A DNA stretch of 64,000 bases. Source: a bacterium. GTDB taxonomy: Bacteria; UBA4055. The first letter of the stretch is position 1, and the number at the start of each line of letters is the position of its first letter. The notes under the pieces are model-generated. The model saw only the letters and a list, made by a program, of their open reading frames with translations. It had not been told where the DNA came from and ran no database searches. Where the stretch lies: positions 105,849 through 169,848 of the forward strand of contig JAKQBN010000055.1 of the NCBI GenBank assembly GCA_029559475.1. The letters are read 5' to 3'. Shown in pieces: positions 4,081 through 23,394 of the stretch. The translations under genes and the position numbers were made by a program.

Positions 4081-5178
4081 ATGAAAAGCCATTCAGATAA
4101 AAACACAAAACAACCAAAACTCCGCTTCCCCGGTTTCACAGAAGAGTGGCAGGAAAAAAGACTGGGGGAAATTGGGAAAATAACTACGGGTAGCACTCCG
4201 AGCACTTTCGTAGAAAAATACTATAACGGGGAATACCTATTCGTATCTCCTTTCGATATTAGTGATAAGAAATATATTTTTACTACACAAAAAACGCTTA
4301 CTGAAGAGGGATTTAAGAAAACAAGAAATATCAAAAAATGCAGTGTATTATTTGTTTGTATAGGTTCGACAATAGGAAAAATTGCCGTAGCGGGTACGGA
4401 TTTAGCGACAAATCAACAAATCAATGCAATAACATGCGAGCATGAAGCCCAGAACGAATTTGTTTATTACTCGTTATTGAAGAAAGCAGATCAAATAAAA
4501 CTCATGGCTGGAGAGCAAGCCGTTCCGATAATAAATAAATCAAACTTTGAAACTGTTAAGTTACCAATGACTTCACCAGCAGAACAAAAGAAGATCTCAG
4601 AATTCCTTTCCGACATAGACACAAAGATCGAAAAACTCACCCGCAAAAAAGAACTCACCGAGCAGTACAAAAAAGGAGCAATGCAAAAAATCTTCTCGCA
4701 GAAAATCCGCTTCAAAGATGATAACGGAAAAAATTATCCTGACTGGCAAGAAAAGAGGCTGGGTGAGGTGGCTACGATAAAAAGAGGAGCAAGCTCTCAA
4801 TATTTAAAATATGTTAATAATTCTTCTGAAGGTGTAAGGCTGATTAGAATCACTGATTTCTTAGAAAGTGAACCAGTATTTATCAAGGAGAGTCTAGAAT
4901 TAGATAGGTTCAAACTAAAAAAAGATGATATCCTTATTGCAGGTACTGGAGCAACAGCAGGTATTACTTTCAAAGTACCAGATAAATTTATCGGTATGGT
5001 TTATAGCTATAACGTTCCTCAGATCACTCCTGTTTCATGTGATCCTAATTATTTAATTCAATTTCTCAAGTCCGATTCGATCTCTAAACAACAAGAAGGT
5101 TTATTTACAGGTAATGCACAGCATTTTTTAGACATAAAGGCAATTTCAAACTTGAAATTACCTTTACAATGTGCATAA
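4081..5178 (+). pseudogene. hsdS: Type I restriction specificity subunit, 5' part, interrupted by IS21
   Basis: HsdS recognises the target DNA through two target-recognition domains (TRDs). TRD1 begins at WQEKRLGEIGKITTG (about residue 20). The central conserved helix is AEQKKISEFLSDIDTKIE (about residues 165-185). TRD2 begins with the matching WQEKRLGEVATIKRG (about residue 222). The gene stops right after LKLPLQ, exactly where the second conserved helix should start. The last codons (Cys, Ala, stop) come from the IS21 left end, which begins at 5170. The missing 42 residues are found at 63736-63864 on the minus strand. Joined, they give a 405-residue protein of normal length. As it stands the subunit lacks its distal spacer helix and is probably inactive. 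Confidence 0.93.
5165..5169. repeat. Target-site duplication (tacaa), hsdS 5' side
   Basis: This is the 5-bp sequence next to the IS21 left end. The same 5 bp, in the matching orientation, abuts the right end of the second IS copy at 63865-63869. The uninterrupted hsdS codons read tta-caa-tgc across this point. Confidence 0.85.
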
Positions 5179-5297
5179 TTCTTGCGAAAGTGACCAGTCA
5201 ATTCCTGTCAAAGTGTTACAGATAATCTGATATAAAATAAAAGTTTTCCACTTCAAGAACTCCTATTATATTCGCTCCGAACAAAAGAGGAGCGGAT

Positions 5298-6929
5298 ATG
5301 TCAAACAGGAGGCTTGATATGATAAATGTTCAACACCTGATACGGCAACTGGCTGAAGGCAAGTCGTATCGGGTAATAGGCACAAATCTGGCGATATCGC
5401 CGACAACTGTCAAGAAATATGCGAAGTATATCAGAAAGAACGGTCTTAATGTCGAAGAGCTTAAGGGAAAACCGCCATCCGAGCTGGAGACTATTATAGA
5501 CATAGCGGATCCTGCAGAAAGGCAACGAGCGGAAGAAGCTTTAACATGTATCAGGAAACATGAAAGTTCTTTGGTTGCAAGGCGGCTGACACGAAAAGAT
5601 GTCTATGAAAAATATAGAATAGATATAGAATCTCCTCTAAGCTACAGCCGTTTCTGCGTAAAAGTAGAAGATGAACTTAAGAAAAGCGGCGCAACAATGC
5701 ACTTTAATCACAAGCCAGGCGACAAGCTGTTCGTTGACTTTGCCGGAGACAAGCTGTGTTATTATGAAAAAGAGACAGGCGAGAAGATATCTGTTGAGGT
5801 CTTTGTGGCTGTTCTCGGACACAGTCAGAAGACCTTTGTCTTTGCGGTACATAGCCAGTGTAAAAACGATTTTATAGAGTCACTTAAGCGTGCGTTCGAA
5901 TACTACGGAGGTATACCATGCGCGATAGTACCGGACAATCTGAAATCAGGCGTAAATAAAGCAAGCTTATATGAACCTGAAATGAACAGGAGCTTCAAAC
6001 ACTTTTGTGAACATTACGGCTGTTTTGCTTATCCCGCAAGGCCGCGTTCTCCAAAAGACAAGAGCCTTGTCGAGAATGCCGTAGGCAGAATGTACAGAGA
6101 CATTTACACGCACATAAAAGCCTGTAAATACTACTCGATGGAAGAGTTGAATGCGGCTATACTTGAAAAGCTTGAAGAATCGAACAATAAACCGTTCCAG
6201 CGTCGTGATTACAGCAGAAATGATCTTTTTGAAAGTAATGAAAAGGACTGCCTTAAGCCGTTGCCTTCAAACGAATATGAGACAGTAGATTTTTACAGTG
6301 CCACAGTCAGGCGCGATTATCATATCTGGTTCAGGCCTGACAAGCACCAGTACAGCGTACCTTATGAATACATAGGCAAAACATTAAAAGTTATTTACAA
6401 TACAGATACCGTAGAGATATTTTACGGATACACAAGAATAGCCTTGCATAAGAGAAACAGATCAAGATACGGCTTTACCACAAACCCTGAACATATGCCG
6501 GCAAATCATAAATACATGGCTGATCTTACTCCTGAAAATCTGATGAAGAAAGCTGAAGAAATAGGCGTTTATACATCATCTGTAATCGAAAAAATACTCG
6601 GATCAGGCAACTATTATGATCAGAGAATAAGAAGCTCAAGAGGAGTACTGTCGCTTGCAAATAAGCTCGGAAAAGAAATTATGGAACAGTGCTGTAAACG
6701 GGCTTTATCATACGGTATTTATAATTACAGACAGCTAAGAAACATAGCGGATATGAAGCTGTATCTTGAAGAAGATATAACCGTAACCGGCGGGTATATA
6801 GACAACCATCAAAACAAGAGAGGTGTTGAATATTATTTTGCGACACTTTTACAGGAATCGTGTGACACTTTGACAAGAATCAGCTACAATAATACAGAAA
6901 TACAAACGAAAACGGAGGCGGAATGTTAA
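5298..6929 (+). CDS. istA: IS21-family transposase IstA
   Basis: This is the DDE transposase that cuts and joins the element's ends together with IstB. An N-terminal helix-turn-helix (about residues 12-45, SYRVIGTNLAISPTTVKKYA) precedes a catalytic rve-type core. In the core D of VDFAGD, D of PDNLKSGV and E of LVENAVG form the D-D-E set (about residues 150-265). The length of 543 residues is normal. The first ATG has GAGGAG upstream, and a second ATG seven codons later also has a good AGGAGG site, so the exact start is open. The last 30 or so residues are encoded by DNA that resembles the element's own right end. Confidence 0.95.
   Translation: MSNRRLDMINVQHLIRQLAEGKSYRVIGTNLAISPTTVKKYAKYIRKNGLNVEELKGKPPSELETIIDIADPAERQRAEEALTCIRKHESSLVARRLTRKDVYEKYRIDIESPLSYSRFCVKVEDELKKSGATMHFNHKPGDKLFVDFAGDKLCYYEKETGEKISVEVFVAVLGHSQKTFVFAVHSQCKNDFIESLKRAFEYYGGIPCAIVPDNLKSGVNKASLYEPEMNRSFKHFCEHYGCFAYPARPRSPKDKSLVENAVGRMYRDIYTHIKACKYYSMEELNAAILEKLEESNNKPFQRRDYSRNDLFESNEKDCLKPLPSNEYETVDFYSATVRRDYHIWFRPDKHQYSVPYEYIGKTLKVIYNTDTVEIFYGYTRIALHKRNRSRYGFTTNPEHMPANHKYMADLTPENLMKKAEEIGVYTSSVIEKILGSGNYYDQRIRSSRGVLSLANKLGKEIMEQCCKRALSYGIYNYRQLRNIADMKLYLEEDITVTGGYIDNHQNKRGVEYYFATLLQESCDTLTRISYNNTEIQTKTEAEC
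6841..6887 (+). repeat. Internal copy of the IS21 right-end sequence within istA
   Basis: About 46 bp here match the outer right end at 7704-7751 with only a few differences. Shared blocks are GACACTTT, ACAGGAATC and GACACTTTGACAAGAATC. The copy lies in frame and encodes the istA tail (CDTLTRIS). Confidence 0.75.
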
Positions 6930-7675
6930 ACGAAAATACATTGTCAAAAATGAAAGAGATGAACCTGACAGGAATGTATGATGCATTTAAGCTAACTCTT
7001 AGCCTGAATGACTATAAGAAAATGACTTGCGATCAGCTAGCGGCATCTCTTGTTGACGCAGAATACGATAACAGGCGAAACAAAAGACTTGCCCAAAGGT
7101 TAAGTACAGCTAAGTTGCGTTATCCGGCATCAGCTGAACAGGTTGACTTTAATGCGGATAGAAAGCTCGATAGAAACCTGTTCATGAGACTTACAGACTG
7201 CAACTACATCAGACAGGCTGAGAATGTTATAATCAGCGGTATGACGGGCACAGGTAAAAGCTATATAGCCTGCGCATTAGGACATCAGGCTTGTATAGCA
7301 GGATATAAAGTTATATATCACAACTTCAACAAACTCATGGCTAAGCTAGTAATGTCAAGAGGAGACAACTCGTATCTAAAGGAAATAAATAAGATAGCCG
7401 GCTACGATCTTTTAATCATAGATGACTTCGGCCTACAAACAATGGATCATGCCTCAAACATATCACTCCTTGAAATACTCGAAGACCGCTACGGCTCGAA
7501 ATCTACGGTCATAGCTTCTCAGATCCCGCCTGAAAACTGGTATGCTCTCTTCAATAGCTCAACTATAGCTGATGCCTGCTTAGACAGAATAATACATAAT
7601 GCGCATAAAATGGATATTACAGGGGAATCTATGAGAAAGAATAAAAAGGTTGCAGCGAAGAAAAAGAATGGTTAA
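6923..7675 (+). CDS. istB: IS21-family ATP-binding helper protein IstB
   Basis: IstB is an AAA+ ATPase that bends target DNA and activates IstA. Walker A is GMTGTGKSY (about residue 106) and Walker B is LLIIDDFG (about residue 163). The N-terminal segment before them matches the IstB N-terminal domain. At 250 residues it is of normal length. It overlaps the end of istA by 7 bp, so translation is probably coupled. The lysine-rich tail (RKNKKVAAKKKNG) lies 76 bp from the element's end. Confidence 0.95.
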   Translation: MLNENTLSKMKEMNLTGMYDAFKLTLSLNDYKKMTCDQLAASLVDAEYDNRRNKRLAQRLSTAKLRYPASAEQVDFNADRKLDRNLFMRLTDCNYIRQAENVIISGMTGTGKSYIACALGHQACIAGYKVIYHNFNKLMAKLVMSRGDNSYLKEINKIAGYDLLIIDDFGLQTMDHASNISLLEILEDRYGSKSTVIASQIPPENWYALFNSSTIADACLDRIIHNAHKMDITGESMRKNKKVAAKKKNG

Positions 7676-7751: not shown

Positions 7752-9505
7752 CCTGTATAATTCTGGCTGGTTTGAGAAGTGCTAACATTTGAGTAGGATC
7801 GCTGGCTTGGGCTAAAAGTATAACTCGATTTACTCGGAGTTATAACTCCTGTCCAGATATCTGTTGGAACAGATAATGAATAATCACCGTTTGAATCTGT
7901 TGTTGTTGATACTATTCCATTGGTTCCTGATAACGTTACACCGCTTATTGTTGCGCCTGAGCTGTTTGTGATCCTGCCTGAAATTACATTTGATGATTCA
8001 CTAAAATTTAATTTAAAAGAATACGGAAAAGCGAATGTGTTTGCTGTGGCAGTTCCTATGATTTTTAAATAAATGTCACTGTTGTATAACAAAGAATATG
8101 AGAACTGAATGTTAGTGCTAAATGTACCGAATTTAACTTGAACTAGGCTGCCATTATTATTCTCATATAAATAGTACGTATTCACACCTGAAGCGTTTGG
8201 ATAAAGATTGACGGTGACACTACCTGGTTTGTTATTGATATATCTATACATATCTTGATCTGATGAACCGCCTCCTGATTGAATAGTTACTGATCCATTA
8301 TATTCTATATTGTTGCTTATCGTATATGCCAATTCTTTAGTTGATGGTTCATCCATTCCTCGGATTAAATGACGGTAAGCGTCACATTCATCATTATGCT
8401 CTAAATTTACATTTAAAGTGTCAGATATATTCAAAGGTACAATATTACCAGTTTCATTTCTTAAATACTGGCGACTATATAAAACACAGCCATCACCAGG
8501 ATCTTGAGGAATTGGATTCAACCAGTTCGCTGGGTTCTCACCATCATGTGAATTAGAAGCTATCCAAGTATACCGAATATTTGGTGGTAATGGCATATTA
8601 GTATTATAACTAAACGAAGCACTACTTAAGTTGAGACCGACAATGTTCGAATTAATAGCACTATCGCAGTTGATGTCCCTATTAAAATAATCATCCAATG
8701 AACTAGACCATTCTTTACCACCAAATAGATAAATTCCGTCTGCGCCAGCATCAAAAGAATATTTCAAATCTCGCATAGCTTCAGAATGTATATTTGGTGG
8801 TGTTTCAGATTTCTGATCGTAATACTTTGTATTAGAAGGATCGAATCCTGAGTTTGATCCAAGATGAGGTGTCCCTATAGTAACTACTCGTGCAACTTTG
8901 TGTCCGTTTATGTTATCAGAAGGATTTACCCACCACTTATGATTAGTGCTTGTTGTACCGTCTATTGTTCTTTGGAGATATTCTCTTATAGCAAGGCCAC
9001 CCATAGAATGCCCAACTAGTATTACTTTCTCCGAGTTCGTAAAATCGATTACTTCAGTTATCATTTTACTTAACGCATATCCCTGCTTAAAAATCGCCGA
9101 TTCATTGCTATGGTCAAACTGATCATTCCACCACCCATCTGCTGCCTTTATTCTTTCTTCTTTGAAATTGATCGCAAAAATATAAGAATCTGGATCCCAA
9201 TCATACAAACTATAATTAAATCTTCGTGGTCCAAGTATTATTGTTTTATCACCATATACTGTATCAGACCATTTGACATCGTTTTCGAGCACAGAAGTAT
9301 CGTTAGCATTATCGAAATTTAGTATAACATCATATGAATTTATGTTTCCCCAATCGTAATTACCACTATTCAAATAATTCATCGTTTCTTGAAATGACTC
9401 ATCGCTACCGACTAGTCCGTGAACGAAAATAATAGGATATGGAGGTTTTGCTCCATAAATTAATGTTGTTAACACGATAATGAGAATCAACAATATTTTC
9501 TTCAT
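7752..9505 (-). pseudogene. Secreted alpha/beta-hydrolase (lipase-like), C-terminus cut off by IS21
   Basis: A signal peptide (MKKILLILIIVLTTLIYG) leads into a lipase core. PIIFVHGLVG carries the oxyanion region, VGHSMGG (about residue 166) the serine nucleophile elbow, and VTIGTPHLGS follows as in PGAP1-like and triacylglycerol lipases. After about residue 380 comes a beta-rich region, then a carboxypeptidase-regulatory-like domain (SGRITNSSGATISGV...). The authentic sequence ends at QNYTG. The last residues before the stop at 7712 are read from IS21, whose right end is at 7751. The reading frame therefore continues 40 bp into the IS, and the true C-terminus is not in the window. The enzyme core is intact, so a shortened protein could still be made. 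Esterase or lipase activity is inferred from the motifs. Confidence 0.85.
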
Positions 9506-9680
9506 TTTCCCCTCTCCTTACTCTTGTATTTAATTTTTTTAATTTTTGATATATCAATGTTATAAAAAACTTGTGCTTATAATCCGTACTTCTTCTATAC
9601 ATTTCTTACTTTCTCAAACTTATAATAATTTAATTTAACATTTCTCAGTTATCTGTTTCAACTGTTTCCGTATTATTTTT

Positions 9681-9700
9681 TATTTTTTCCATTTTTAGCT
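9681..9700 (-). repeat. Conserved 20-bp element downstream of TPR paralogue 1
   Basis: Read on the minus strand this is AGCTAAAAATGGAAAAAATA, located 11-30 bp after the stop of the upstream gene. It matches the element at 11115-11134 in 19 of 20 positions. Confidence 0.5.
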
Positions 9701-9710
9701 TCGATTTTTG

Positions 9711-11036
9711 TTATATGAACTGATGTCTGTGTTCGGGATATACTAGAGATGGGGTACTGATCTGTCGGATCATCTGGTCGGCCTGAGCCTTTATTTCATG
9801 ATAGCCGTTCTTTTGTGCCAGCTCGATGGACTTTTTGTAACATTCAACAGCTTTTTCAGTATTATAAAGTTCTTTTACGATCAGTCCGCAGTTCAGGTAG
9901 AATAATGCTAAAGCTTTTTCGTCATTGAGCGATGATACAATGCTGTGCGCCTTATTTAAATGATAGATAGAATTTTTACTGTCCTTAATGATCCTGTGAC
10001 AGTCCGAATAGAGCATATATATCTGGTATCTGTACAGGTTCTGTCTGTCGGCCGGCAGAGAACGGATCCTGAGTAAAGCGGATTTTAAAAGGTATTTTGT
10101 CGTCTCGGAATTGCTTCGGATGATCGATATCTTTGATCTTTTGATTATGGCATTTATCAGCAGCTCATCATCGGATCCTGAACCTTCAAGAATGTGGATC
10201 AGTTTCTCGCAGATATTGTCTGAAGTCTCGTGATTTTTATTCTTTCTGTGCTGGACCGCGGCGCTGTACTTTGCTTTAAGATCGCTTATCGTTTTTTCAG
10301 TATCGAAAAAATTCCCGCAGTCATACACGATGTCTGAATGCATGGTCATGTTGACTTTTTTTATAAAACTTTTGAATTTATTTGATTTTAACGCGGATCT
10401 TTCCAGAATTATCTGATTGTTCAAAGAGACCGTAGCCAACGAATCGAAAAGGAAATCACAGATGTTCTCGTATCTTGTCCTTTCTTTTAAATAATTATAT
10501 TTTTTTAGGGAAAAATTAACATATTTTCTTATCTCTTTATAATGTTTCAGAATAAATTCTATATCTTTGTATCTGCTTCTATCAACATCGAATATTTCGC
10601 AGGATTTATCTATAAATAGCCTTTTTATTCTGATCCCCGATCTTTTGCAGTCTGAAATGAATTGAGCTATGAACTGACTTAGGATCCGTTTTTCTTTTAC
10701 GGGCGAATATGCGCAGAATACAAATCCGTGATTAATGTCTTTTATGAGATATCTGAATACAGGTTTTTCTTTTTGCAGCGGATACAGTTCCGATACTTTT
10801 AATACAAGTTCTGAAAGCGGACTGCCGTTAGCCTTATAATTATCGTTTCCGTCTTCTTTTTTCTTTTGACTTTTATTCTTTGAAAGAAGACCGTTCTTTT
10901 GTGAGTTGATCCAGTTTCTTATTGTTCGCGGAGTTATCCCGTGAATTTCTGCAAGTTTTTTTATTTTTTTTCTGCTCGTAGCCTGTTTTATAACTTTCAG
11001 CTTTTCCTCGACGGACTTACGCATAATAATGCTCAT
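9711..11036 (-). CDS. Transposase-like HTH/DDE-remnant protein with TPRs, paralogue 1
   Basis: The 441-residue protein opens with a transposase-type helix-turn-helix (about residues 5-50, KKIKKLAEIHGITPRTIRNW). A region follows that reads like a worn rve/DDE core. Possible triad residues are D of LIKDINHGFVFCAYS, D of LFIDKS and E of KERTRYEN, with the last two about 41 residues apart. From about residue 270 onward it is helical with TPR character, including KAVECYKKSIELAQKNG. It is a shorter sister of the next gene upstream and has the same domain order. No terminal inverted repeats or partner ORF mark it as a live IS. A domesticated transposase turned regulator is the favoured inference. 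A short alternative start at 11024 is possible. Confidence 0.6.
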   Translation of the reverse strand: MSIIMRKSVEEKLKVIKQATSRKKIKKLAEIHGITPRTIRNWINSQKNGLLSKNKSQKKKEDGNDNYKANGSPLSELVLKVSELYPLQKEKPVFRYLIKDINHGFVFCAYSPVKEKRILSQFIAQFISDCKRSGIRIKRLFIDKSCEIFDVDRSRYKDIEFILKHYKEIRKYVNFSLKKYNYLKERTRYENICDFLFDSLATVSLNNQIILERSALKSNKFKSFIKKVNMTMHSDIVYDCGNFFDTEKTISDLKAKYSAAVQHRKNKNHETSDNICEKLIHILEGSGSDDELLINAIIKRSKISIIRSNSETTKYLLKSALLRIRSLPADRQNLYRYQIYMLYSDCHRIIKDSKNSIYHLNKAHSIVSSLNDEKALALFYLNCGLIVKELYNTEKAVECYKKSIELAQKNGYHEIKAQADQMIRQISTPSLVYPEHRHQFI

Positions 11037-11114
11037 TTTAATTTTCGGTTAATGTTTTATAAGCAAAATTTAATGCATAAAAAAGCTGAATTCAATTATT
11101 GCCGGATATTTTTA

Positions 11115-11134
11115 TATTTTTTCCGTTTTTAGCT
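11115..11134 (-). repeat. Conserved 20-bp element downstream of TPR paralogue 2
   Basis: Read on the minus strand this is AGCTAAAAACGGAAAAAATA, located 27-46 bp after the paralogue 2 stop. It differs at one position from the element at 9681-9700. A looser similarity extends a further 25 bp or so to TTGAA. Confidence 0.5.
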
Positions 11135-11160
11135 ATGTTTTTAAAAATATGAAATAACTT

Positions 11161-13278
11161 TTATACCTGATGCAACTCTAATTGTTTTTTCACAAAGTAC
11201 ATCTGTTCTTCAGTATCGTATAATTTACTTTTTAGCAGTTCCTGCAGATAAATTTTATAAGCTTCTTTTTTGTTCGTCTTATAAAAATCAGACTTTTTTT
11301 CTAATATTACTGAAGAATAAGCATAGAATTCATTTGAATCTGAATCTGCTTTCTTATTAAGGATTTTTAAATTCGCTTTTGCCTTTTTAAAATCTCCGGA
11401 CTCTATGTGCAGTTCGATTAATACCGTCAAAGCTTTGAGATAAGGGAATGGATTTCCTTTTGTTGTCTTTGCTATTTCTATTGCTGATAATATTTCCGAT
11501 TCAGCCTTTACGAACTTTTTTTCAATTTTTGAGATCATTCCGTTATATAAAGGCAAATTATACTTCTGTGAAGTATTATCCGTATTCTCCAAGAGCAGAG
11601 AAACCTCGGACAATCTGCTTTTTACATCGGAAATTCGTCCTGATTCAATTTCAGACAGACACAAATTCAGCATATTATCTATAAGCGGTACTTTCAGGTT
11701 GTTTTTTTGCGATAATTCAATATTGTCTTCAAATATTTTCCCGGCTTTTAGAAATTCATTCATTTTTATATACGCCACGGCTTTGTTGCCCGATACAGGG
11801 ATTCGAATGGTGGTCAGCACAGCAGGATTATCTGATCTGTCAATAATTTCAACGGACTTATCATAAGCTTTAATGCTTTCCGATAATTTTCCCGCGATCT
11901 GAAGACAGTCTCCGTATTTTGCCCATAGAACTACTTTCTGAACGAACATGTTTTTATATAGATCATCGGCTATCATTTTTTCGTATAATTTTATTGCTTC
12001 TGAAGTATTACCTCTTTTTACGTTGTAATCAGCTTTATTCTCTTTTACCGCAAGAAGGATGTCGTCGAATTTATTCTTCTCGGCTAATACTTCGGACTTG
12101 AGTAAGAATTCTTCAGCTTTATCAAATGTACCTGTATTCTTATAAAATAGGGAATAATTTATGTAAAATATTGCCTTGTTCCTTTCATTGCTGTCTGCTT
12201 CAACTTGTCGTCTTGCTTTTTCAAAGAAATAAAGGCACTTTCTGTTTTCGTTTGTCAGTCTGTAAACATCCGCGTAAAGCATATAGCCTGCATACTTAAA
12301 CCCGCTTATTTTATCAGCCGGAAGTAATTTCGCCATTTTCATAGCCTTCGAAAAGTATTTTCTTGCATTAACCATATCTTTTTTTAATGCATAGACCTTC
12401 CCTATCTGGATCAGTATTTTTGCGTACAGTTCCGAATAAGATCCCGAATCTTTTAAGATCACTTCTATCCTTCTGTAACGGTCATCCGAATTCACAAGAT
12501 CGAATTTTTTATGGATTTCGAGAGCCTGATCGAACATTTTTGTCAGTATTTCGCCTGATCTGCTTTCGTCAAAGCTTTTAACTTCATCGGAAAGAATAGC
12601 CGAATGATACTTTATGTTCAGCTTTTTTACAGATTCGAAACATTTGGAAGATTTTACAGCCTTATATTTTTCTAATGCTGTATGATTGTTTTTTGCTGTC
12701 GTAGCCATAGAATCAAATAAAAATTCATTATTGTTTTCGTATTTTGTTCTTTCTTTCATAAAACTATTGTGCTTTGTTGTAAAAGTCAGATGTTTTTTGA
12801 TCGAAGTGTTGTTAACGCAGGTCAGTATTGTGCCTGTAGATTTTAGATCACTAACATGATTTCTTTTATCTGTAATAATTTTCTTTACTGTTATTCCTGA
12901 TTTTTTCAGGTCTGAAAGAAAGAGATTTAAAATTTCTTTGAAATATCCGTTAGAGTTGTCGGATGAATACGCGCATAGAATAAATCCGCGGTTTATATCT
13001 TTTAAAAGATGCCTGTAAACAGTTTGATCTTTCAGAACAGAATATACAAGTGAAACTTTATAAACCGATTCGCTGAAAGGTCCTGATATTTTTTTACTCT
13101 TTTGAGGACTTTTCGGATCAGGATCCTTTTTGCCGTTAAGTTCGCCTGCTTTGTAAAGCGCGATCCAGTTCTTTATGGTTTTTTCGGTAATCCCGTGCTG
13201 GATGGCGAGTTTCTTTATCAGCTTTTTACTTTTCGCCTGTTTTACGATCTCTAATTTCTCGATCAATGATCTGGTCAT
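11161..13278 (-). CDS. Transposase-like HTH/DDE-remnant protein with TPRs, paralogue 2
   Basis: This 705-residue protein has the same plan as its neighbour. The HTH is at about residues 5-48 (KLIKKLAIQHGITEKTIKNW). The DDE-like region is at about residues 80-230, with D of LLKDINRGFILCAYS, D of IITDKRNH and E of KERTKYEN as candidate triad residues. A long TPR array runs from about residue 265 to the end (e.g. ALKKDMVNARKYFSKAMKMA, KLSESIKAYDKSVEII). There is no signal peptide, so it should act in the cytoplasm. HTH plus TPR recalls peptide- or partner-sensing regulators, while the middle recalls IS3/IS481 transposases. The function is unknown. Confidence 0.6.
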   Translation of the reverse strand: MTRSLIEKLEIVKQAKSKKLIKKLAIQHGITEKTIKNWIALYKAGELNGKKDPDPKSPQKSKKISGPFSESVYKVSLVYSVLKDQTVYRHLLKDINRGFILCAYSSDNSNGYFKEILNLFLSDLKKSGITVKKIITDKRNHVSDLKSTGTILTCVNNTSIKKHLTFTTKHNSFMKERTKYENNNEFLFDSMATTAKNNHTALEKYKAVKSSKCFESVKKLNIKYHSAILSDEVKSFDESRSGEILTKMFDQALEIHKKFDLVNSDDRYRRIEVILKDSGSYSELYAKILIQIGKVYALKKDMVNARKYFSKAMKMAKLLPADKISGFKYAGYMLYADVYRLTNENRKCLYFFEKARRQVEADSNERNKAIFYINYSLFYKNTGTFDKAEEFLLKSEVLAEKNKFDDILLAVKENKADYNVKRGNTSEAIKLYEKMIADDLYKNMFVQKVVLWAKYGDCLQIAGKLSESIKAYDKSVEIIDRSDNPAVLTTIRIPVSGNKAVAYIKMNEFLKAGKIFEDNIELSQKNNLKVPLIDNMLNLCLSEIESGRISDVKSRLSEVSLLLENTDNTSQKYNLPLYNGMISKIEKKFVKAESEILSAIEIAKTTKGNPFPYLKALTVLIELHIESGDFKKAKANLKILNKKADSDSNEFYAYSSVILEKKSDFYKTNKKEAYKIYLQELLKSKLYDTEEQMYFVKKQLELHQV

Positions 13279-13416
13279 ACATAACCCCTCTTAATTTATT
13301 ACTTTTCGCCAATATCGTTTTACATCACTTTTAGTGATAATTTATAAAAGACTGAATGAATAATCAAGATATATTAAACGTGATCGATAAATCAGCGGAG
13401 TTGAAATAATCTTAAA

Positions 13417-13450
13417 ATAAAAAAGGCAGTACATAATTACTGCCTTTTTA
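13417..13450 (-). terminator. Rho-independent terminator after the VWA lipoprotein gene
   Basis: The stem GGCAGTA/TACTGCC with a 6-base loop is flanked by A-runs on one side and T-runs on the other, so it can work in both directions. It lies 36 bp past the stop of the minus-strand VWA gene. Confidence 0.75.
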
Positions 13451-13485
13451 TTCAAAACCGGAATACCCGGTCATGTTCTTCAGAT

Positions 13486-14664
13486 CTAGTAATTAGCTTT
13501 GACTGTTACTTCCCCGTCCGAAGTTCCTATATCGATCACTATACGAATATCTTTTTCCGTGCCGTCAGTTTTAGATGTTTCAAATTCAACAAGCGAAGAT
13601 GCTGCTGTGACTTCAACAATCGGAAGTGTAGTAAGATCAACATATCCTGTATAATCACCTGCTCCGAAAATATCGAACCACATTCCTCCTGTTCCGGCAG
13701 ATGTATATGAAATTTCATTCAGAATTAAATTTCCCGGTTGAGCCAGCCAGTGCATATCGTAAGCGCCATTTTCAAGATAAGTATAATCTGGTGTCGGGGA
13801 TACGACGTGGACGGTTGCATATCCTTCAAGAGCTGCCGCAAGTTCATCGGTTCGCCATGGAGAATGAGACGTTCCCGATCCGACAGGAGCGCCTTCACCC
13901 CATGTGGATACATCTGTAAGGACTATGAACATTTTCTGCGCGCCTTCTCTCCATGTAAAATTGTTGTAAGCCCACCATATAGCATCAAATCCGCCTTCGG
14001 GGCTATCACCACCGTCATATCCTTCATAACCTGCATACAAGCTGTCAACGAATTTGTAAACCGGTCCTGTTGTATCGATCTTGGTAGTAATATTTTCATA
14101 GTCTACAACTACATAAGCTCCTGGATCATTATCGTCGGGTATTCCATTAATTTCAACAGGAATTCTCGAATCGTAATTATCTGCATATGCTACTGCTCCT
14201 GCTGCGACATTTATTCCTTCTGATTTCATGTTTTTTAAGAAATCAGTAACGCTGGCTCTGACACCGTCTATTGTTCCGCTCATCGAACCTGTTACGTCGA
14301 TTATAAAAACGATATCCGTTCCCAAAGAGATAGTGCCGTCGTTATTTGTAATTTTTATACCCTGAACTACTCCGTCTTCAACCACTGTCAGGTTCTCGGT
14401 CGTGTAGATAATAGGATCACCTTTGCTTACATTTAAAAGTCCACCGACATTGAGTTTGACTCTTGTAGGATTAGACGGATCTACTTTAACCGCTACGTTC
14501 GGTTTGAGCGGTCCGCTTTTTACTGCCGGTGGAAGAGTCCCCGGATCTGCAGGTATATCGGAATTATCAACTACTATCGGTTCCGACGATTTTTCATCAC
14601 TACATGACCATATGAACATACCGGCTATGATAACTGCCAATGTTAAAAACTGCCATTTTTTCAT
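13486..14664 (-). CDS. VWA-domain lipoprotein
   Basis: This 392-residue exported protein has a signal segment ending at a lipobox-like IWSC (Cys about residue 21), so it is probably a lipid-anchored protein. A low-complexity spacer is followed by a von Willebrand factor A domain from about residue 115. Its MIDAS motif DVTGSMS supplies the D-x-S-x-S metal site, and LTDVSTWG supplies the distal aspartate. The C-terminal 50 residues form a small beta domain ending VTVKANY. VWA domains bind proteins or matrix in a metal-dependent way, and the ligand is unknown. It has its own terminator and appears to be monocistronic. Confidence 0.85.
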   Translation of the reverse strand: MKKWQFLTLAVIIAGMFIWSCSDEKSSEPIVVDNSDIPADPGTLPPAVKSGPLKPNVAVKVDPSNPTRVKLNVGGLLNVSKGDPIIYTTENLTVVEDGVVQGIKITNNDGTISLGTDIVFIIDVTGSMSGTIDGVRASVTDFLKNMKSEGINVAAGAVAYADNYDSRIPVEINGIPDDNDPGAYVVVDYENITTKIDTTGPVYKFVDSLYAGYEGYDGGDSPEGGFDAIWWAYNNFTWREGAQKMFIVLTDVSTWGEGAPVGSGTSHSPWRTDELAAALEGYATVHVVSPTPDYTYLENGAYDMHWLAQPGNLILNEISYTSAGTGGMWFDIFGAGDYTGYVDLTTLPIVEVTAASSLVEFETSKTDGTEKDIRIVIDIGTSDGEVTVKANY

Positions 14665-17325: not shown

Positions 17326-20300
17326 ATGAAGAGAATATTAATTTGGGCTCTGTCGGTTATGTTATTCATCCCGGCAGCTGCGTTTTCGCAGTTCGCGGGA
17401 GGAGACGGATCGTCAGGGAATCCGTATCAGGTTTCTACTGCTGCTGAACTCAATAACGTAAGAAATTATCTCACATCTTACTTTATCCAGACAGCCGACA
17501 TTCAGCTTGGTGAATCACCCTGGAATCAGGGAGAGGGATGGAATCCTATAGGTACGAACTCTACGAGCTTTCAGGGTAACTATAACGGAGGCAATTACAA
17601 GATCCTGAACCTGACTATAAACAGGGGTCTTACTAACTATGTCGGCATTTTCGGATACTGCAGCAGCGCAACTCTGCAGAACATAGTCATTCAGTCTCCG
17701 AACATCACAGCGTACACAGCCATCGGGCCACTAGTGGGATACGCTTTAAACAGCTACATTTCGAACTGCGCGGTCATAGGAGGCGGCAGTATATCCGGTG
17801 AAAATTACGTCGGAGGTTTAGCAGGATGGATCGTTGGATCTAACATCTATTCAAGCTATACATACATAAACGTATTCGGTTTTGAAAGGATAGGCGGGAT
17901 GGTGGGAAGGTGCGATACTAATTCCAACATCGCGAACTCTTATTCCAGATCATATGTTTCGGCATCCAACGATTACGCCGGAGGTTTCGCGGGGTACTGC
18001 CTGCAGACAACTGTAGCGAACAGCTATTCCTCCGGTTATGTTGACTGCGTAGGGTCAGTCAAAGGCGGATTCATTGCGTATAATACTGTTACTGCTAACA
18101 TTACTGAATGCTATTGGGATACCGAAGCAAGCGGTCAGACTTCTTCTCCGGGCGGAGGTACAGGAAAAACAACAGCCGAAATGAAATCTCAGACAACTTT
18201 CTCAGCATGGGATTTTTCAACACCGGTATGGAAAATATATTCGTCCGTAAACGACGGATATCCTTATCTTGCATGGGGTGACTGGCCCGGCATACTAACT
18301 ACTATCGCCAGCCCGTCTGAGGGAGGTTCTGTTACCACCGGAGGAGCTTATGAAGAGGGGACGCCGGTATGGCTAGAAGCTTCACCGACAGCTCCCTATT
18401 ATCAGTTCAAAAACTGGACGGATAATACATCGGCCGTCATTTCGACCGATCCGAACTTCGTATATTATATGCCGGAAGGAGATATGACCCTGACGGCGAA
18501 ATTCGAAAAATATTTTTCTGAAGTCAGCGCCGGATTTAGAGATGTTGCGGAAAGCACAACAAGCTGGTGCGATTATGATAACGACGGCGATCTTGATGTT
18601 CTTGTTGTCGGCTGGAACGGCGCATCAAGCAAAGTTGCAGAAAGAGTTGCAAAAATTTACAGAAACGACGGCGGTGAAGTTTTTACAGATATAAATGCCG
18701 GTCTGATTCCGGTTAGATATTCATCTTGTGCCTGGGGTGATTATGATAACGACGGTCTTCTCGATCTGGTAGTTTCCGGTTGGGAGAGTTCGTTAGTAAG
18801 TACAAGAATTTATAAAAACTACGGTAGTGATCAATTCTATGATGTTGGTGCCGGATTACCCGGGATCAATTCAGGTTCTGTCGCATGGTCGGATTACGAT
18901 AATGACGGCGATCTCGATCTCACTCTAAGCGGATGGTGCCCTTCGCAGGGACATAATATTACGAACATTTATAAAAACACGAACGGCAGCTTTACCGATA
19001 TAAGCGCAGGTTTAACAGGGTTGCAGTACAGCTCGATAGCATGGGCGGATTACGACAATGACGGCGATCCTGATCTGCTGACAACAGGATTAACTGACGG
19101 TTCGACGACACTGACCGTTCTCTACAATAACAATAACGGTATTTTTACAGATGCCGGAATAGGCCTTCATAATCTTCATAACGGATCAGTTGCGTGGGGT
19201 GATTATGATAACGATGGCGATCCTGATATACTTCTGACGGGCCAGGAAACAGGTGGAAAACAATATACTGAGATATACAGGAACGATTTAACAGGTTTTA
19301 CAGATATAGACGCCGCTACCGATTATGCGTCATGGAGTTCTGCAGCATGGTGCGATATCGATAACGACGGAATACTTGATATCATTGTTACCGGAAAAAA
19401 TCCTGATGAAATTAAAATAGCGAAAGTTTATAACATTTTCAGTGATACAGTTTATGAAAAAACAAATATCGCATTCGAAGGAGTACACTGGGGATCTATT
19501 GGATGCGGTGATTATGACAATGACGGGGACTCAGATATTATTATTTCGGGGTACGACAGCATAGAACATGCTGTAACAAAACTTTACAGAAATAACCACC
19601 ACCCGGTTAATACTCCGCCTTCAGCTCCTGCCAATCTTGCTTGGACGCTGTTCGACAATGATGTTACTTTATCATGGGACAGGTCGACAGACAGCCAGAC
19701 TTATGATATGGGTCTGACATACAACATCTATGTCGGTTCATCGCCTGCGAACGGAAATACGAAAAGCTCAATGAGCGATAATTCTACCGGTTTCAGAAAA
19801 GTAGTGCAGCTCGGAAATGCGGGTCAGCTTAACTCTTATACAATTAAGGACCTTCCGCTGGGAACATACTACTGGAGCGTCCAGGCGATTGATCCGTCCT
19901 ATAAAGGCTCTCTTTTTGCGACCGAAGGTACATTTGTCGTAAGTTCATTCACCGAAATGACGACATCGCTCCCCGGTCTCGGGAATAGTTATAATTCATG
20001 GGGAGACTACGATAACGACGGCGATCTTGACGTTATTGTTTCCGGAACGACCGGAACAGCCAGACTTACTGAAATATTCAGGAATGACGGCGGAGGAACT
20101 TTTACCGATATCGACGCCGGTATTGTGAATGTATGGTACAGCGCTTCAGCCTGGGGCGATTATGATAACGACGGAGATCTAGACCTCGTAATTTCCGGAC
20201 ACACAGGCTCGGTAAGAACTGCTAATATCTACATGAATGATTCAGGCGTATTTACCGATATCGGCGCAGGACTTCCCGGAGTAAATGCCGGATCTTTAGC

Positions 20301-23300
20301 ATGGGGCGACTATGATAACGACGGCGACCTTGATCTTCTGCTGACAGGTTATAACGGTACTTCCGCTATTTCAGCATTGTACAGAAACGATTCGGGAGTT
20401 TTTACCGATACCTCAGCCGGTATAACAGGCGTCTATAAATCTTCAGGATCATGGGCGGATTACGATAACGACGGCGATCTCGATATTCTGATCACAGGAC
20501 TTGTTACAGGTGTGACAAGAGTAGCAAAAATTTACAGAAATGATTACGGTTATTTCTTTGAGATTTCAGCGGGGTTAACTGGAGTCCAGGACGGAACTTC
20601 GGCTTGGGGCGACTTTGATAACGACGGCGATCAGGATATACTTATGACCGGAAACGGTATTGCTAAGATATACCATAACAACGGTTTCGACAATTTCTCA
20701 GAATGGGATGCCGGATTTACCGGCGTAAATTTTTCTTCAGCTGCATGGGGAGATTACGATAGCGACGGTGATCTCGATGCAATTATATCCGGTTTAGCAG
20801 GCTCAGAGAAAACTGTAAAAATATACCGTAACGAAGGCTGGGGTTTTACGGATATCGGTGCCGGCCTACAGGGTATTCAGGACGGATCAGTTACATGGGC
20901 TGATTACGACAATGATAATGATCTTGATGTCTTTTACACCGGAACTGCGGGAACTACAAAAACATCGAAACTTTACAGGAACAATGCTGTTATAAAAAAT
21001 ACAACACCTTCAGATCCTGTAAATCTTTCTTCGGTAGTTCATACGGACGGATCGGTTACTTTCTCGTGGGATAGAGCGTCTGACAATGAAACACCTCAGT
21101 ACGGACTTTCCTATAACCTTTACATTTCTTCAACGAGCATGGGCCTGGATCAGATGACACCTATGAGCGACCTGACTAACGGATACAGAAGAATTGTAAA
21201 CACAGGAAATATGTGCCAGGCAACTTCTTGGACGATCAAAGACCTGCCGACCGGACATTTCTACTGGAGCGTACAGGCTGTTGACCATAACTTCGCCGGC
21301 TCAAATTTCTCCGGAGAACAGGAGTACAGCTCATTTACTAATATTAATGCCGGATTAGAAGGCATACATATCGGAGACGGCGACTGGGGTGACTTCGACA
21401 ACGACGGTGATCTCGATATTCTTTTGACAGGGTACGAGAGTTCATACGGTCCGTTCGCAGCGGTTTATCGTAATAATATTGGAACAAAGATGTCCGAGTT
21501 TTCAAACATATCAGCGGCATTAGAAGGAGTTTACGAAAGTGCTTCCGAATGGGCAGATTATGATAACGACGGAGACCTCGATATAGCTTTGTGCGGATAT
21601 TCATACACCTACGGTTACACAACAAGGATCTACCGTAACGATTCCGGTGTATTTACTGATATAAATGCTCCGCTTCAGGGTGTCCAAGATGGTTCTCTTA
21701 ATTGGGGCGACTACGATAATGACGGTGACCTGGATCTTCTTTTGACTGGACATAACGGTAGTTATTATGTGTCTAAGGTTTATCGCAATGATTCAGGTAC
21801 TTTTAGTGACATCTCAGCTCCGTTAGAAGGTGTTTACAACGGATCTGCGGAATGGGGCGATTATGATAATGACGGTGATCTCGACATTGTATTATGCGGA
21901 TATAACGGGTCATACACTATTTCCAAAATATACCGTAATGACTCTGGATCGTTTACAGATATTTCAGCCCAGATTATAGATGCATATTACGGCTCGATTG
22001 ACTGGGGAGATTATGACAACGACGGCGACCTCGATATTCTTTTAAGCGGATATTCATACACCTCTGGCATCATAACAAAAATCTACCGTAACGATTCTGG
22101 AACTTTTACAGATATAAACGCAGCTCTTGCCGTTGTACATGCCGGATCGGCTTACTGGGGCGATTATGATAATGACGGGGATCTTGATATCGCTTTAACC
22201 GGTCATAACGGATACGGGGGAACTTCAAAAATATACCGTAATGATAATGGTATCTTCACAGATACGAATGCTCCTATTATGAGCCTTTACTGGAGTGATT
22301 TGTCATGGGGTGACTATAACAATGACGGAGCACTTGACCTGCTTTTATGCGGTTATAACGATTACGACGGTTCATATTATTCCATAGTTTATGAGAACAA
22401 TTCTATCATTACTAATCCGGTCGTCAGCGCTCCGGCCGATCTTGTTATTTCAGGCAAACTGAACGATGCCGTATTCAGTTTTACTCCGCCTGCAACGAAA
22501 TCTCCTGCAGAAAGCTATACATACAATATGGATATTTCTATCGCTGGAATCAATGTTAAAACCTCTATGGCAGACATCACTACCGGGCAAAGAAAAGTCG
22601 CTGAGATCGGCAACCTGAATTTTGGTAATTCTGATTTTAAAAAAGGTCCGGTAGCATCTTCCTGGAATCTTCTGAAGAATATGCCTAACACAATACTGCC
22701 GCAGGAAGTTCTTCTTGTAGAAGCTGCTGTACAGTCAGTAGATCATTCTTATACAGGATCAGCTTTCACTTTTGCATTTGAACATCTTCCGAATAGAGAT
22801 CTTAAGACTCTGCCGAAAGAAGTAATGGTCCGCACAGATGAACTGCTCTGGGAATTATTCTGGTCGGACTCTCTGCAAAGCTATACTCTTCAAATGGATG
22901 AAGATCCTCTCTTTAACAGCCCGTTCGAAGAAACGCAGTATCTTGTCAAAAATGATCCTAAGATTATCTATGTAGCTGTTGAACTCCAGGATCTTTCTTT
23001 CTTCAGCAGCATGACCGACAACACGACCTATTACTGGAGAGTAAGACCGAATCATGTTAACCACAGTAAAGAGACCGTTTTCAATTCAGCTCCGGATTCT
23101 TTCATATATAATCCGGTTCTTTCTGCTCCTCTGAATGTAGCTGTCGCAAGCATTGACGGCAACAGCGTCGTTCTTACCTGGGATCCTGTACCGCTTCCGA
23201 ATGTTGAATACAGCGTTTACAGTGCGAACATGCCTTATGCGGTTTTCCCGGCAGAATGGACGCTCGAAGCCTCTAAACTCGGAAATACGACTTGTACGGT

Positions 23301-23394
23301 TAATTCGGGCGGTGCTGCAATGAAATTCTTCATCGTTACTGCTACAGATGGAATGAAGTCAGTAACTATTAAGAAAATTTCAGAAAGAAAATAG
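17326..23394 (+). CDS. Giant secreted FG-GAP/VCBS-repeat protein with three seven-repeat blocks
   Basis: This 2022-residue exported protein has a signal peptide ending near AAAFSQ (residue 22). Residues about 60-270 are GLUG-type repeats (YVGGLAGW, YAGGFAGY). Residues about 325-395 resemble a divergent InlB B-repeat (GGSVTTGGAYEEGTPV, MTLTAKF). Then come 21 repeats of the Ca2+-loop type DYDNDGDLD followed by a hydrophobic strand, in three groups of exactly seven (about residues 415-735, 890-1200 and 1353-1670). Fibronectin-III-like linkers (PSAPANLAWTLFDNDVTLSW) separate the groups. The tail has more Fn3-like sequence and no obvious sorting signal or anchor. The FG-GAP/VCBS family forms seven-bladed propellers that bind protein or sugar ligands, so a role in surface adhesion is likely. 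Frequent D-x-D-x-D loops predict heavy calcium binding. Confidence 0.92.
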   Translation: MKRILIWALSVMLFIPAAAFSQFAGGDGSSGNPYQVSTAAELNNVRNYLTSYFIQTADIQLGESPWNQGEGWNPIGTNSTSFQGNYNGGNYKILNLTINRGLTNYVGIFGYCSSATLQNIVIQSPNITAYTAIGPLVGYALNSYISNCAVIGGGSISGENYVGGLAGWIVGSNIYSSYTYINVFGFERIGGMVGRCDTNSNIANSYSRSYVSASNDYAGGFAGYCLQTTVANSYSSGYVDCVGSVKGGFIAYNTVTANITECYWDTEASGQTSSPGGGTGKTTAEMKSQTTFSAWDFSTPVWKIYSSVNDGYPYLAWGDWPGILTTIASPSEGGSVTTGGAYEEGTPVWLEASPTAPYYQFKNWTDNTSAVISTDPNFVYYMPEGDMTLTAKFEKYFSEVSAGFRDVAESTTSWCDYDNDGDLDVLVVGWNGASSKVAERVAKIYRNDGGEVFTDINAGLIPVRYSSCAWGDYDNDGLLDLVVSGWESSLVSTRIYKNYGSDQFYDVGAGLPGINSGSVAWSDYDNDGDLDLTLSGWCPSQGHNITNIYKNTNGSFTDISAGLTGLQYSSIAWADYDNDGDPDLLTTGLTDGSTTLTVLYNNNNGIFTDAGIGLHNLHNGSVAWGDYDNDGDPDILLTGQETGGKQYTEIYRNDLTGFTDIDAATDYASWSSAAWCDIDNDGILDIIVTGKNPDEIKIAKVYNIFSDTVYEKTNIAFEGVHWGSIGCGDYDNDGDSDIIISGYDSIEHAVTKLYRNNHHPVNTPPSAPANLAWTLFDNDVTLSWDRSTDSQTYDMGLTYNIYVGSSPANGNTKSSMSDNSTGFRKVVQLGNAGQLNSYTIKDLPLGTYYWSVQAIDPSYKGSLFATEGTFVVSSFTEMTTSLPGLGNSYNSWGDYDNDGDLDVIVSGTTGTARLTEIFRNDGGGTFTDIDAGIVNVWYSASAWGDYDNDGDLDLVISGHTGSVRTANIYMNDSGVFTDIGAGLPGVNAGSLAWGDYDNDGDLDLLLTGYNGTSAISALYRNDSGVFTDTSAGITGVYKSSGSWADYDNDGDLDILITGLVTGVTRVAKIYRNDYGYFFEISAGLTGVQDGTSAWGDFDNDGDQDILMTGNGIAKIYHNNGFDNFSEWDAGFTGVNFSSAAWGDYDSDGDLDAIISGLAGSEKTVKIYRNEGWGFTDIGAGLQGIQDGSVTWADYDNDNDLDVFYTGTAGTTKTSKLYRNNAVIKNTTPSDPVNLSSVVHTDGSVTFSWDRASDNETPQYGLSYNLYISSTSMGLDQMTPMSDLTNGYRRIVNTGNMCQATSWTIKDLPTGHFYWSVQAVDHNFAGSNFSGEQEYSSFTNINAGLEGIHIGDGDWGDFDNDGDLDILLTGYESSYGPFAAVYRNNIGTKMSEFSNISAALEGVYESASEWADYDNDGDLDIALCGYSYTYGYTTRIYRNDSGVFTDINAPLQGVQDGSLNWGDYDNDGDLDLLLTGHNGSYYVSKVYRNDSGTFSDISAPLEGVYNGSAEWGDYDNDGDLDIVLCGYNGSYTISKIYRNDSGSFTDISAQIIDAYYGSIDWGDYDNDGDLDILLSGYSYTSGIITKIYRNDSGTFTDINAALAVVHAGSAYWGDYDNDGDLDIALTGHNGYGGTSKIYRNDNGIFTDTNAPIMSLYWSDLSWGDYNNDGALDLLLCGYNDYDGSYYSIVYENNSIITNPVVSAPADLVISGKLNDAVFSFTPPATKSPAESYTYNMDISIAGINVKTSMADITTGQRKVAEIGNLNFGNSDFKKGPVASSWNLLKNMPNTILPQEVLLVEAAVQSVDHSYTGSAFTFAFEHLPNRDLKTLPKEVMVRTDELLWELFWSDSLQSYTLQMDEDPLFNSPFEETQYLVKNDPKIIYVAVELQDLSFFSSMTDNTTYYWRVRPNHVNHSKETVFNSAPDSFIYNPVLSAPLNVAVASIDGNSVVLTWDPVPLPNVEYSVYSANMPYAVFPAEWTLEASKLGNTTCTVNSGGAAMKFFIVTATDGMKSVTIKKISERK

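What the first reader, a model, noticed from the sequence alone, without database searches (positions are those of the whole stretch)
9711..13278. Tandem paralogues that fuse a transposase-like HTH/DDE region to TPR repeats
Both proteins start with a transposase HTH, continue with a region retaining D...D...E spacing in worn form (LxKDINxGF, IDK/TDK, KERTxYEN), and end with TPRs (about 5 and 14 units by eye). The same LPAD and CAYS phrases recur in both. Transposase-to-regulator conversion joined to TPRs is unusual. Neither has inverted repeats or an accompanying IS ORF.
Basis: partly seen in the sequence, partly recalled or inferred. Interest (0 to 1): 0.7.

Follow-up and report, generated by a model that had tools for sequence, protein, structure and literature searches.

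The report
Dead transposases fused to TPR repeats
In a little-known bacterial phylum (Candidatus Delongbacteria), an ancient jumping-gene enzyme lost its cutting site, was joined to a long protein-binding superhelix, and spread into a phylum-wide family of probable DNA-binding regulators; the two window genes are a tandem pair of this family.

Summary
The two genes are real: 11161-13278 (705 aa) and 9711-11036 (441 aa), both on the minus strand, tandem paralogues (43% identical over the N-terminal 231 aa). Each is HTH + RNase H-like core + TPR superhelix. The core is a dead DDE transposase core. AlphaFold gives the RNase H order of strands and helices, matching retroviral integrases (Z about 12) and IstA. 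A family profile hits stand-alone IS481-like transposases in other phyla across HTH and core, and one such transposase finds family members at E 8e-25. The true first catalytic Asp is Lys in both window proteins and absent in all 45 members with a scorable core. The family occurs in all 13 Delongbacteria genomes (1-15 places each). In the sample searched, no TPR fusion was found outside the phylum. In a tree the fusions fall on one side of a 100/99 branch, and 18 retain the transposase's C-terminal PPxxxD tail just before the TPRs, so a TPR array was probably added once to a whole transposase. dN/dS of 0.07-0.15 in related subfamilies shows constraint. Best reading: domesticated DNA-binding regulators with a TPR sensing or docking arm. 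Origin shown; regulatory role inferred.

The parts
11161..13278 (-). HTH - dead RNase H/DDE core - TPR superhelix protein, 705 aa (paralogue 1)
9711..11036 (-). HTH - dead RNase H/DDE core - short TPR array protein, 441 aa (paralogue 2)
13135..13278 (-). transposase-type HTH of paralogue 1 (residues 1-48)
   Evidence: Pfam HTH_28; three helices, pLDDT about 97
12667..13086 (-). RNase H-like, rve-derived core of paralogue 1 (residues 65-204): b1-b2-b3-a-b4-b5-a
   Evidence: AF2 plus PDB comparison
13057..13059 (-). codon of K74, at the place of the first catalytic Asp of DDE transposases (lost)
   Evidence: joint alignment with intact transposases
12868..12870 (-). codon of D137 (TDK), at the second catalytic Asp (kept here; not kept in L060 and L061)
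12751..12753 (-). codon of E176 (KERT), probable place of the catalytic Glu; E/E/D/N/E among the five close members
   Evidence: placement by eye, low model confidence at residues 168-173
11164..12567 (-). TPR superhelix of paralogue 1 (residues 238-705), 23 helices
   Evidence: Foldseek to LGN and OGT TPR superhelices
10875..11036 (-). HTH of paralogue 2 (residues 1-54)
10398..10823 (-). RNase H-like core of paralogue 2 (residues 72-213), K80 at the first Asp position
   Evidence: by alignment
9747..10304 (-). TPR array of paralogue 2 (about 5 units, by alignment to paralogue 1)
   Evidence: TPR_12 339-409
13420..13449 (-). intrinsic-terminator-like hairpin between the vWA gene and paralogue 1: the pair probably forms its own transcription unit
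   Evidence: 3 found against 2.5 expected in the region, but 12-bp stem, intergenic
11091..11153 (-). 3' flank of paralogue 1, 76% identical to the 3' flank of paralogue 2 (9657-9719); trace of local duplication

Best explanation
These are domesticated, catalytically dead IS481-like transposases. A whole transposase (HTH, RNase H core, PPxxxD tail) became fused at its C-terminus to a TPR superhelix early in the Delongbacteria, and the fusion then duplicated and diverged. Shown: the fold, the homology to transposases, loss of the first catalytic Asp, phylum-wide occurrence, and constraint in sister subfamilies. Inferred: the HTH still binds DNA at chosen host sites, the dead core works as a dimerisation or DNA-holding scaffold, and the TPR superhelix binds a protein or peptide and passes on its state, as in other HTH-TPR regulators. 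The window pair would be two such regulators with a long and a short sensing arm, in their own transcription unit. Origin as a dead transposase: about 0.95; DNA-binding regulator: about 0.65.
For: Fold: strands 70-82, 85-94, 100-105, helix 110-126, strands 133-137 and 151-155, helix 183-204, pLDDT 84; Foldseek top hits are IstA (E 2e-5) and retroviral integrases; VIA Z 12.1, rmsd 2.6, 129 aligned to the ASV integrase core. Homology: the family profile hits stand-alone transposases in other phyla over HTH and core, E down to 1.6e-27; one of them, present in near-identical copies in its genome, finds family members at E 8e-25, 30-32% identity; the relatives score as IS481 at E about 1e-36; core-only profile comparison, window clade against transposases, E 2.4e-5. 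Dead site: first Asp absent in all 45 members with a scorable core, present in all 8 transposases. One fusion: 45 fusions against 8 transposases split at a 100/99 branch; PPxxxD tail kept in 18 members just before the TPRs and present at the C-terminus of L152, L153, L157 and L158. Constraint: dN/dS 0.067-0.147 for most whole orthologue pairs with usable dS, 0.04-0.11 in the core of those pairs. Vertical descent: the C55 copy and the G008 copy share seven neighbour gene families (mltD, PBP2, mreB and others).
Against: No DNA target, ligand or expression data. Some members lack the HTH (L041, L045, L048, L049) and some lack the core (L141, L145), so neither part is needed in every member. The window clade itself is too diverged for dN/dS, is found in only 3 of 13 genomes, and its third copy (C55) carries an in-frame stop at the core/TPR boundary. 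The third catalytic residue cannot be placed firmly.
Confidence: 0.65

Rival explanations
1. The proteins are anti-transposition factors: dead transposases that bind the ends of related IS481-like elements, or join their complexes, and so block transposition.
For: They derive from the transposase and keep its HTH; a degenerate stand-alone relative exists in G005:C36. Intact rve transposases are few in the phylum.
Against: No intact target element of this subfamily was seen in the 13 genomes; the family is strongly diversified and long-lived without the element; a TPR arm is not needed for this role.
Confidence: 0.12
2. They are not DNA regulators but scaffold proteins: the HTH and dead core are a dimerising base for a TPR adaptor that assembles other proteins.
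For: Several members have lost the HTH yet keep core plus TPR; TPR superhelix resembles LGN and OGT.
Against: Most members keep the HTH, and it is under constraint where tested (dN/dS 0.07-0.12 in two orthologue pairs).
Confidence: 0.17
3. They are still active transposases or nucleases using a rearranged active site.
For: Second Asp and a possible Glu are kept in the window proteins.
Against: First Asp is Lys, and is absent in all 45 scorable members; no inverted repeats; paralogues are diverged, not near-identical mobile copies; conserved synteny across genera.
Confidence: 0.02
4. They are decaying pseudogenes of a fused transposase.
For: One of the three close copies in this genome is split by a stop; the shorter paralogue has lost most TPRs.
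Against: Long open frames in nearly all members across the 13 genomes and dN/dS far below 1 in sister subfamilies.
Confidence: 0.04

Closest known systems
IS481-family and related (IS3/IS21) rve-type DDE transposases
   Same: HTH and RNase H-like core; sequence homology over both; C-terminal PPxxxD tail shared with the nearest stand-alone relatives
   Different: first catalytic Asp lost; no inverted repeats; single diverged host genes; TPR superhelix added
TldR (TnpB-like nuclease-dead repressors; PMC13418256)
   Same: transposon-encoded enzyme that lost catalysis and serves the host as a DNA-binding regulator (the role here is inferred)
   Different: TldR comes from the RuvC-type, RNA-guided TnpB; this family comes from a DDE transposase, shows no sign of a guide RNA and carries TPRs
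HTH-TPR regulators (RRNPP group such as NprR and PlcR; MalT/AfsR-type TPR regions) - from general knowledge
   Same: HTH plus TPR arrangement, with TPR as a possible sensor; weak TPR_MalT match
   Different: HTH is of transposase type rather than XRE or LuxR, and an RNase H-like domain sits between
Eukaryotic transposase-derived transcription factors - from general knowledge
   Same: host domain fused to a transposase, which supplies DNA binding
   Different: bacterial; whole transposase with dead core retained; one phylum-wide expansion

Membership tests
IS481-like / rve DDE transposase (mobile element) | transposase HTH at the N-terminus | tested here: met
   HTH_28/HTH_Tnp_1; IS481 profile over the HTH
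IS481-like / rve DDE transposase (mobile element) | RNase H-like core | tested here: met
IS481-like / rve DDE transposase (mobile element) | intact D-D-E triad | tested here: not met
   first Asp is Lys in both window proteins, absent in all 45 scorable members
IS481-like / rve DDE transposase (mobile element) | terminal inverted repeats around the gene | tested here: not met
   only weak, misplaced arms in 9300-13600
IS481-like / rve DDE transposase (mobile element) | near-identical copies in the genome | tested here: not met
   best other copies 43% and 36% identical
HTH-TPR one-component regulators (RRNPP-like) | TPR superhelix C-terminal to an HTH | tested here: met
HTH-TPR one-component regulators (RRNPP-like) | XRE-type HTH directly joined to the TPRs | tested here: not met
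   HTH is transposase type, and an RNase H-like domain intervenes
HTH-TPR one-component regulators (RRNPP-like) | binds a signalling peptide and regulates promoters | not testable with these tools
   needs biochemistry
TldR | derived from TnpB with guide RNA | tested here: not met
   derived from a DDE transposase instead
known anti-phage defence proteins | match to PADLOC models beyond the TPRs | tested here: inconclusive
   no match for either window protein; only generic TPR models for relatives

The most novel reading that the evidence does not exclude
One transposase captured near the root of a bacterial phylum founded that phylum's own class of sensor-regulators: DNA-binding HTH, dead DDE core as dimerising or DNA-pairing module, TPR superhelix as input, later shedding either the HTH or the core in sub-branches.
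Probability: 0.5. Interest if true: 0.8.

Novelty: new variant of a known kind. Interest (0 to 1): 0.66.

Why it matters
Transposon enzymes turned host regulators are known in eukaryotes and, in bacteria, from the RNA-guided TnpB line (TldR). A DDE transposase kept whole, catalytically dead and fused to a TPR arm as a phylum-wide, multi-copy family was not found in the papers searched. It provides a traceable series: intact transposases, a member (L131) that branches first on the fusion side and seems by eye to keep a transposase insert, full fusions, then loss of HTH or core. What a dead DDE core does once catalysis is gone becomes directly testable.

Tried and rejected
Single-protein scan of genome contigs gave nothing. 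Pfam and NCBIfam see only the HTH and the TPRs with confidence, not the middle. The only frames of 450 aa or more outside the phylum hit by the profile were unrelated transposases (G374, a TnsB-like protein next to an ATPase; G098), not TPR fusions. Viral contigs: none for the window clade. Empty-site comparison at mutS2: neighbours are not conserved, so no conclusion. Defence role: no PADLOC support. The second broad genome sample largely repeated the first, so it adds little.

Full report
Observation. The two ORFs exist as described, both on the minus strand: 11161-13278 (705 aa) and 9711-11036 (441 aa). Their first 231 residues are 43% identical, and they share LPAD and CAYS. Pfam sees a transposase-type HTH and TPRs, and nothing between. 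A hairpin terminator-like site (13420-13449) separates the pair from the vWA gene upstream. The 3' flanks of the two genes share a 63-nt, 76% repeat found nowhere else in the genome at meaningful scores, as expected from local duplication.

Relatives. In this genome a third close copy lies on contig C55. Close orthologues lie in G006 and G008, of the same family. The phylum has 13 genomes in the collection; named relatives show it to be Candidatus Delongbacteria. A profile of the first six sequences (A3) reaches 10 of 13 genomes at E <= 1. The 22-sequence profile A5 reaches all 13, with 57 places, 1 to 15 per genome (2 is the lowest count seen); most of the open frames are 450-900 aa. Most members examined have HTH, core and TPR; some lack the HTH (L041, L045, L048, L049), and some lack the core (L141, L145).

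Fold. AlphaFold on the 236-residue N-terminal part with A5 gives pLDDT 84: three HTH helices, then strand-strand-strand-helix-strand-strand-helix, the RNase H order. Foldseek's best PDB matches are the IS21 transposase IstA and retroviral integrases. VIA-align gives Z 12.1, rmsd 2.6 over 129 residues with the ASV integrase core, residues 62-200 of the model. The full-length model (pLDDT 88, pTM 0.75) shows 23 helices after residue 237, about 11 TPR-like hairpins, matching TPR superhelices such as LGN and OGT. This model was folded without the initiator Met.

Origin. Outside the phylum A5 hits stand-alone proteins of about 200-390 aa over HTH and core. They carry an intact D-D-E and score as IS481-like at E about 1e-36, below the curated cut-off of that model. 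The G152 element is present in near-identical copies, so it is mobile. That transposase as a single query finds family members at E 8e-25 with 30-32% identity over both domains. With the HTH left out and each side aligned on its own, the window clade still matches the transposase core at E 2.4e-5, and the rest of the family at E 2e-13; the core bounds were taken from a joint alignment.

Active site. In the joint alignment the first catalytic Asp of the transposases (FQIDIKYL) falls on K74 of the 705-aa protein and K80 of the 441-aa protein (residue numbers counted from the sequences). None of the 45 members with a scorable core has Asp there. The second Asp is kept in both window proteins and the C55 copy but is Asn or Cys in the orthologues. 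The Glu position is uncertain; KERT is E/E/D/N/E in the five close members.

History. A maximum-likelihood tree puts 45 fusions and 8 transposases on two sides of a 100/99 branch; the window clade of five is 100/100 with a long stem; L131 branches first among the fusions. L131 also seems, by eye, to keep a transposase insert that the others lack. The tree is rooted on the transposases by assumption, only eight were used, and some branches are long. The transposase tail PP[ILV]xxD is present in 18 fusions just before the TPRs (one locus appears twice in that list and was counted once), so the TPR array was added to the end of a whole transposase. Orthologue pairs of sister subfamilies with usable dS mostly have dN/dS of 0.067-0.147 overall (one within-genome pair, L044/L058, 0.27); dS is high in several, so these are rough. 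The C55 copy and the G008 orthologue share a block of seven neighbour families including mltD, PBP2 and mreB, so this copy descends vertically across genera. The C55 copy is split by an in-frame TAA at the core/TPR boundary, whereas the G008 copy is open over 714 aa.

Function. What is shown is a conserved, dead transposase with an added TPR superhelix. The inferred role is a DNA-binding regulator with a TPR input arm, by analogy with HTH-TPR regulators and with TldR, the nuclease-dead TnpB-derived regulators (PMC13418256). The review of mobile-element recruitment in prokaryotes describes regulators taken from HTH proteins of phages and toxin-antitoxin pairs; the passages read name no DDE transposase (PMC8987985). 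Anti-transposition, scaffold and pseudogene readings are kept as rivals.

Limits. The sampling outside the phylum is about 370 genomes, and the library holds open-licence papers only. The claim that TPR fusions are confined to Delongbacteria therefore stands for that sample alone.

Noticed in passing
window 4081-7675: An IS21 element (istA 5298-6929, istB 6923-7675) begins 120 nt after a type I restriction specificity gene (hsdS, 4081-5178), which may be cut short by it.
   Followed up: partly
L059 9891-12050 (G000:C55): Third close copy is split by an in-frame TAA at the boundary between the HTH-core part and the TPR part; the syntenic G008 copy is open over 714 aa.
   Followed up: partly
L045:7064-7384, L048:3625-3960, L050:7718-8056, L057:3843-4160, L058:1893-2249: A small ORF of about 110 aa without Pfam match (one member tested) recurs beside one subfamily of the fusion proteins, possibly a partner.
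   Followed up: partly
G005:C36:4214-4727: Broken remnant of a stand-alone IS481-like transposase inside the phylum, a trace of the ancestral element.
   Followed up: no
window 17326-23394: A 2022-aa protein with many repeats of the form 'WGDYDNDGDLDI', apparently secreted (FG-GAP/VCBS-like by eye).
   Followed up: no
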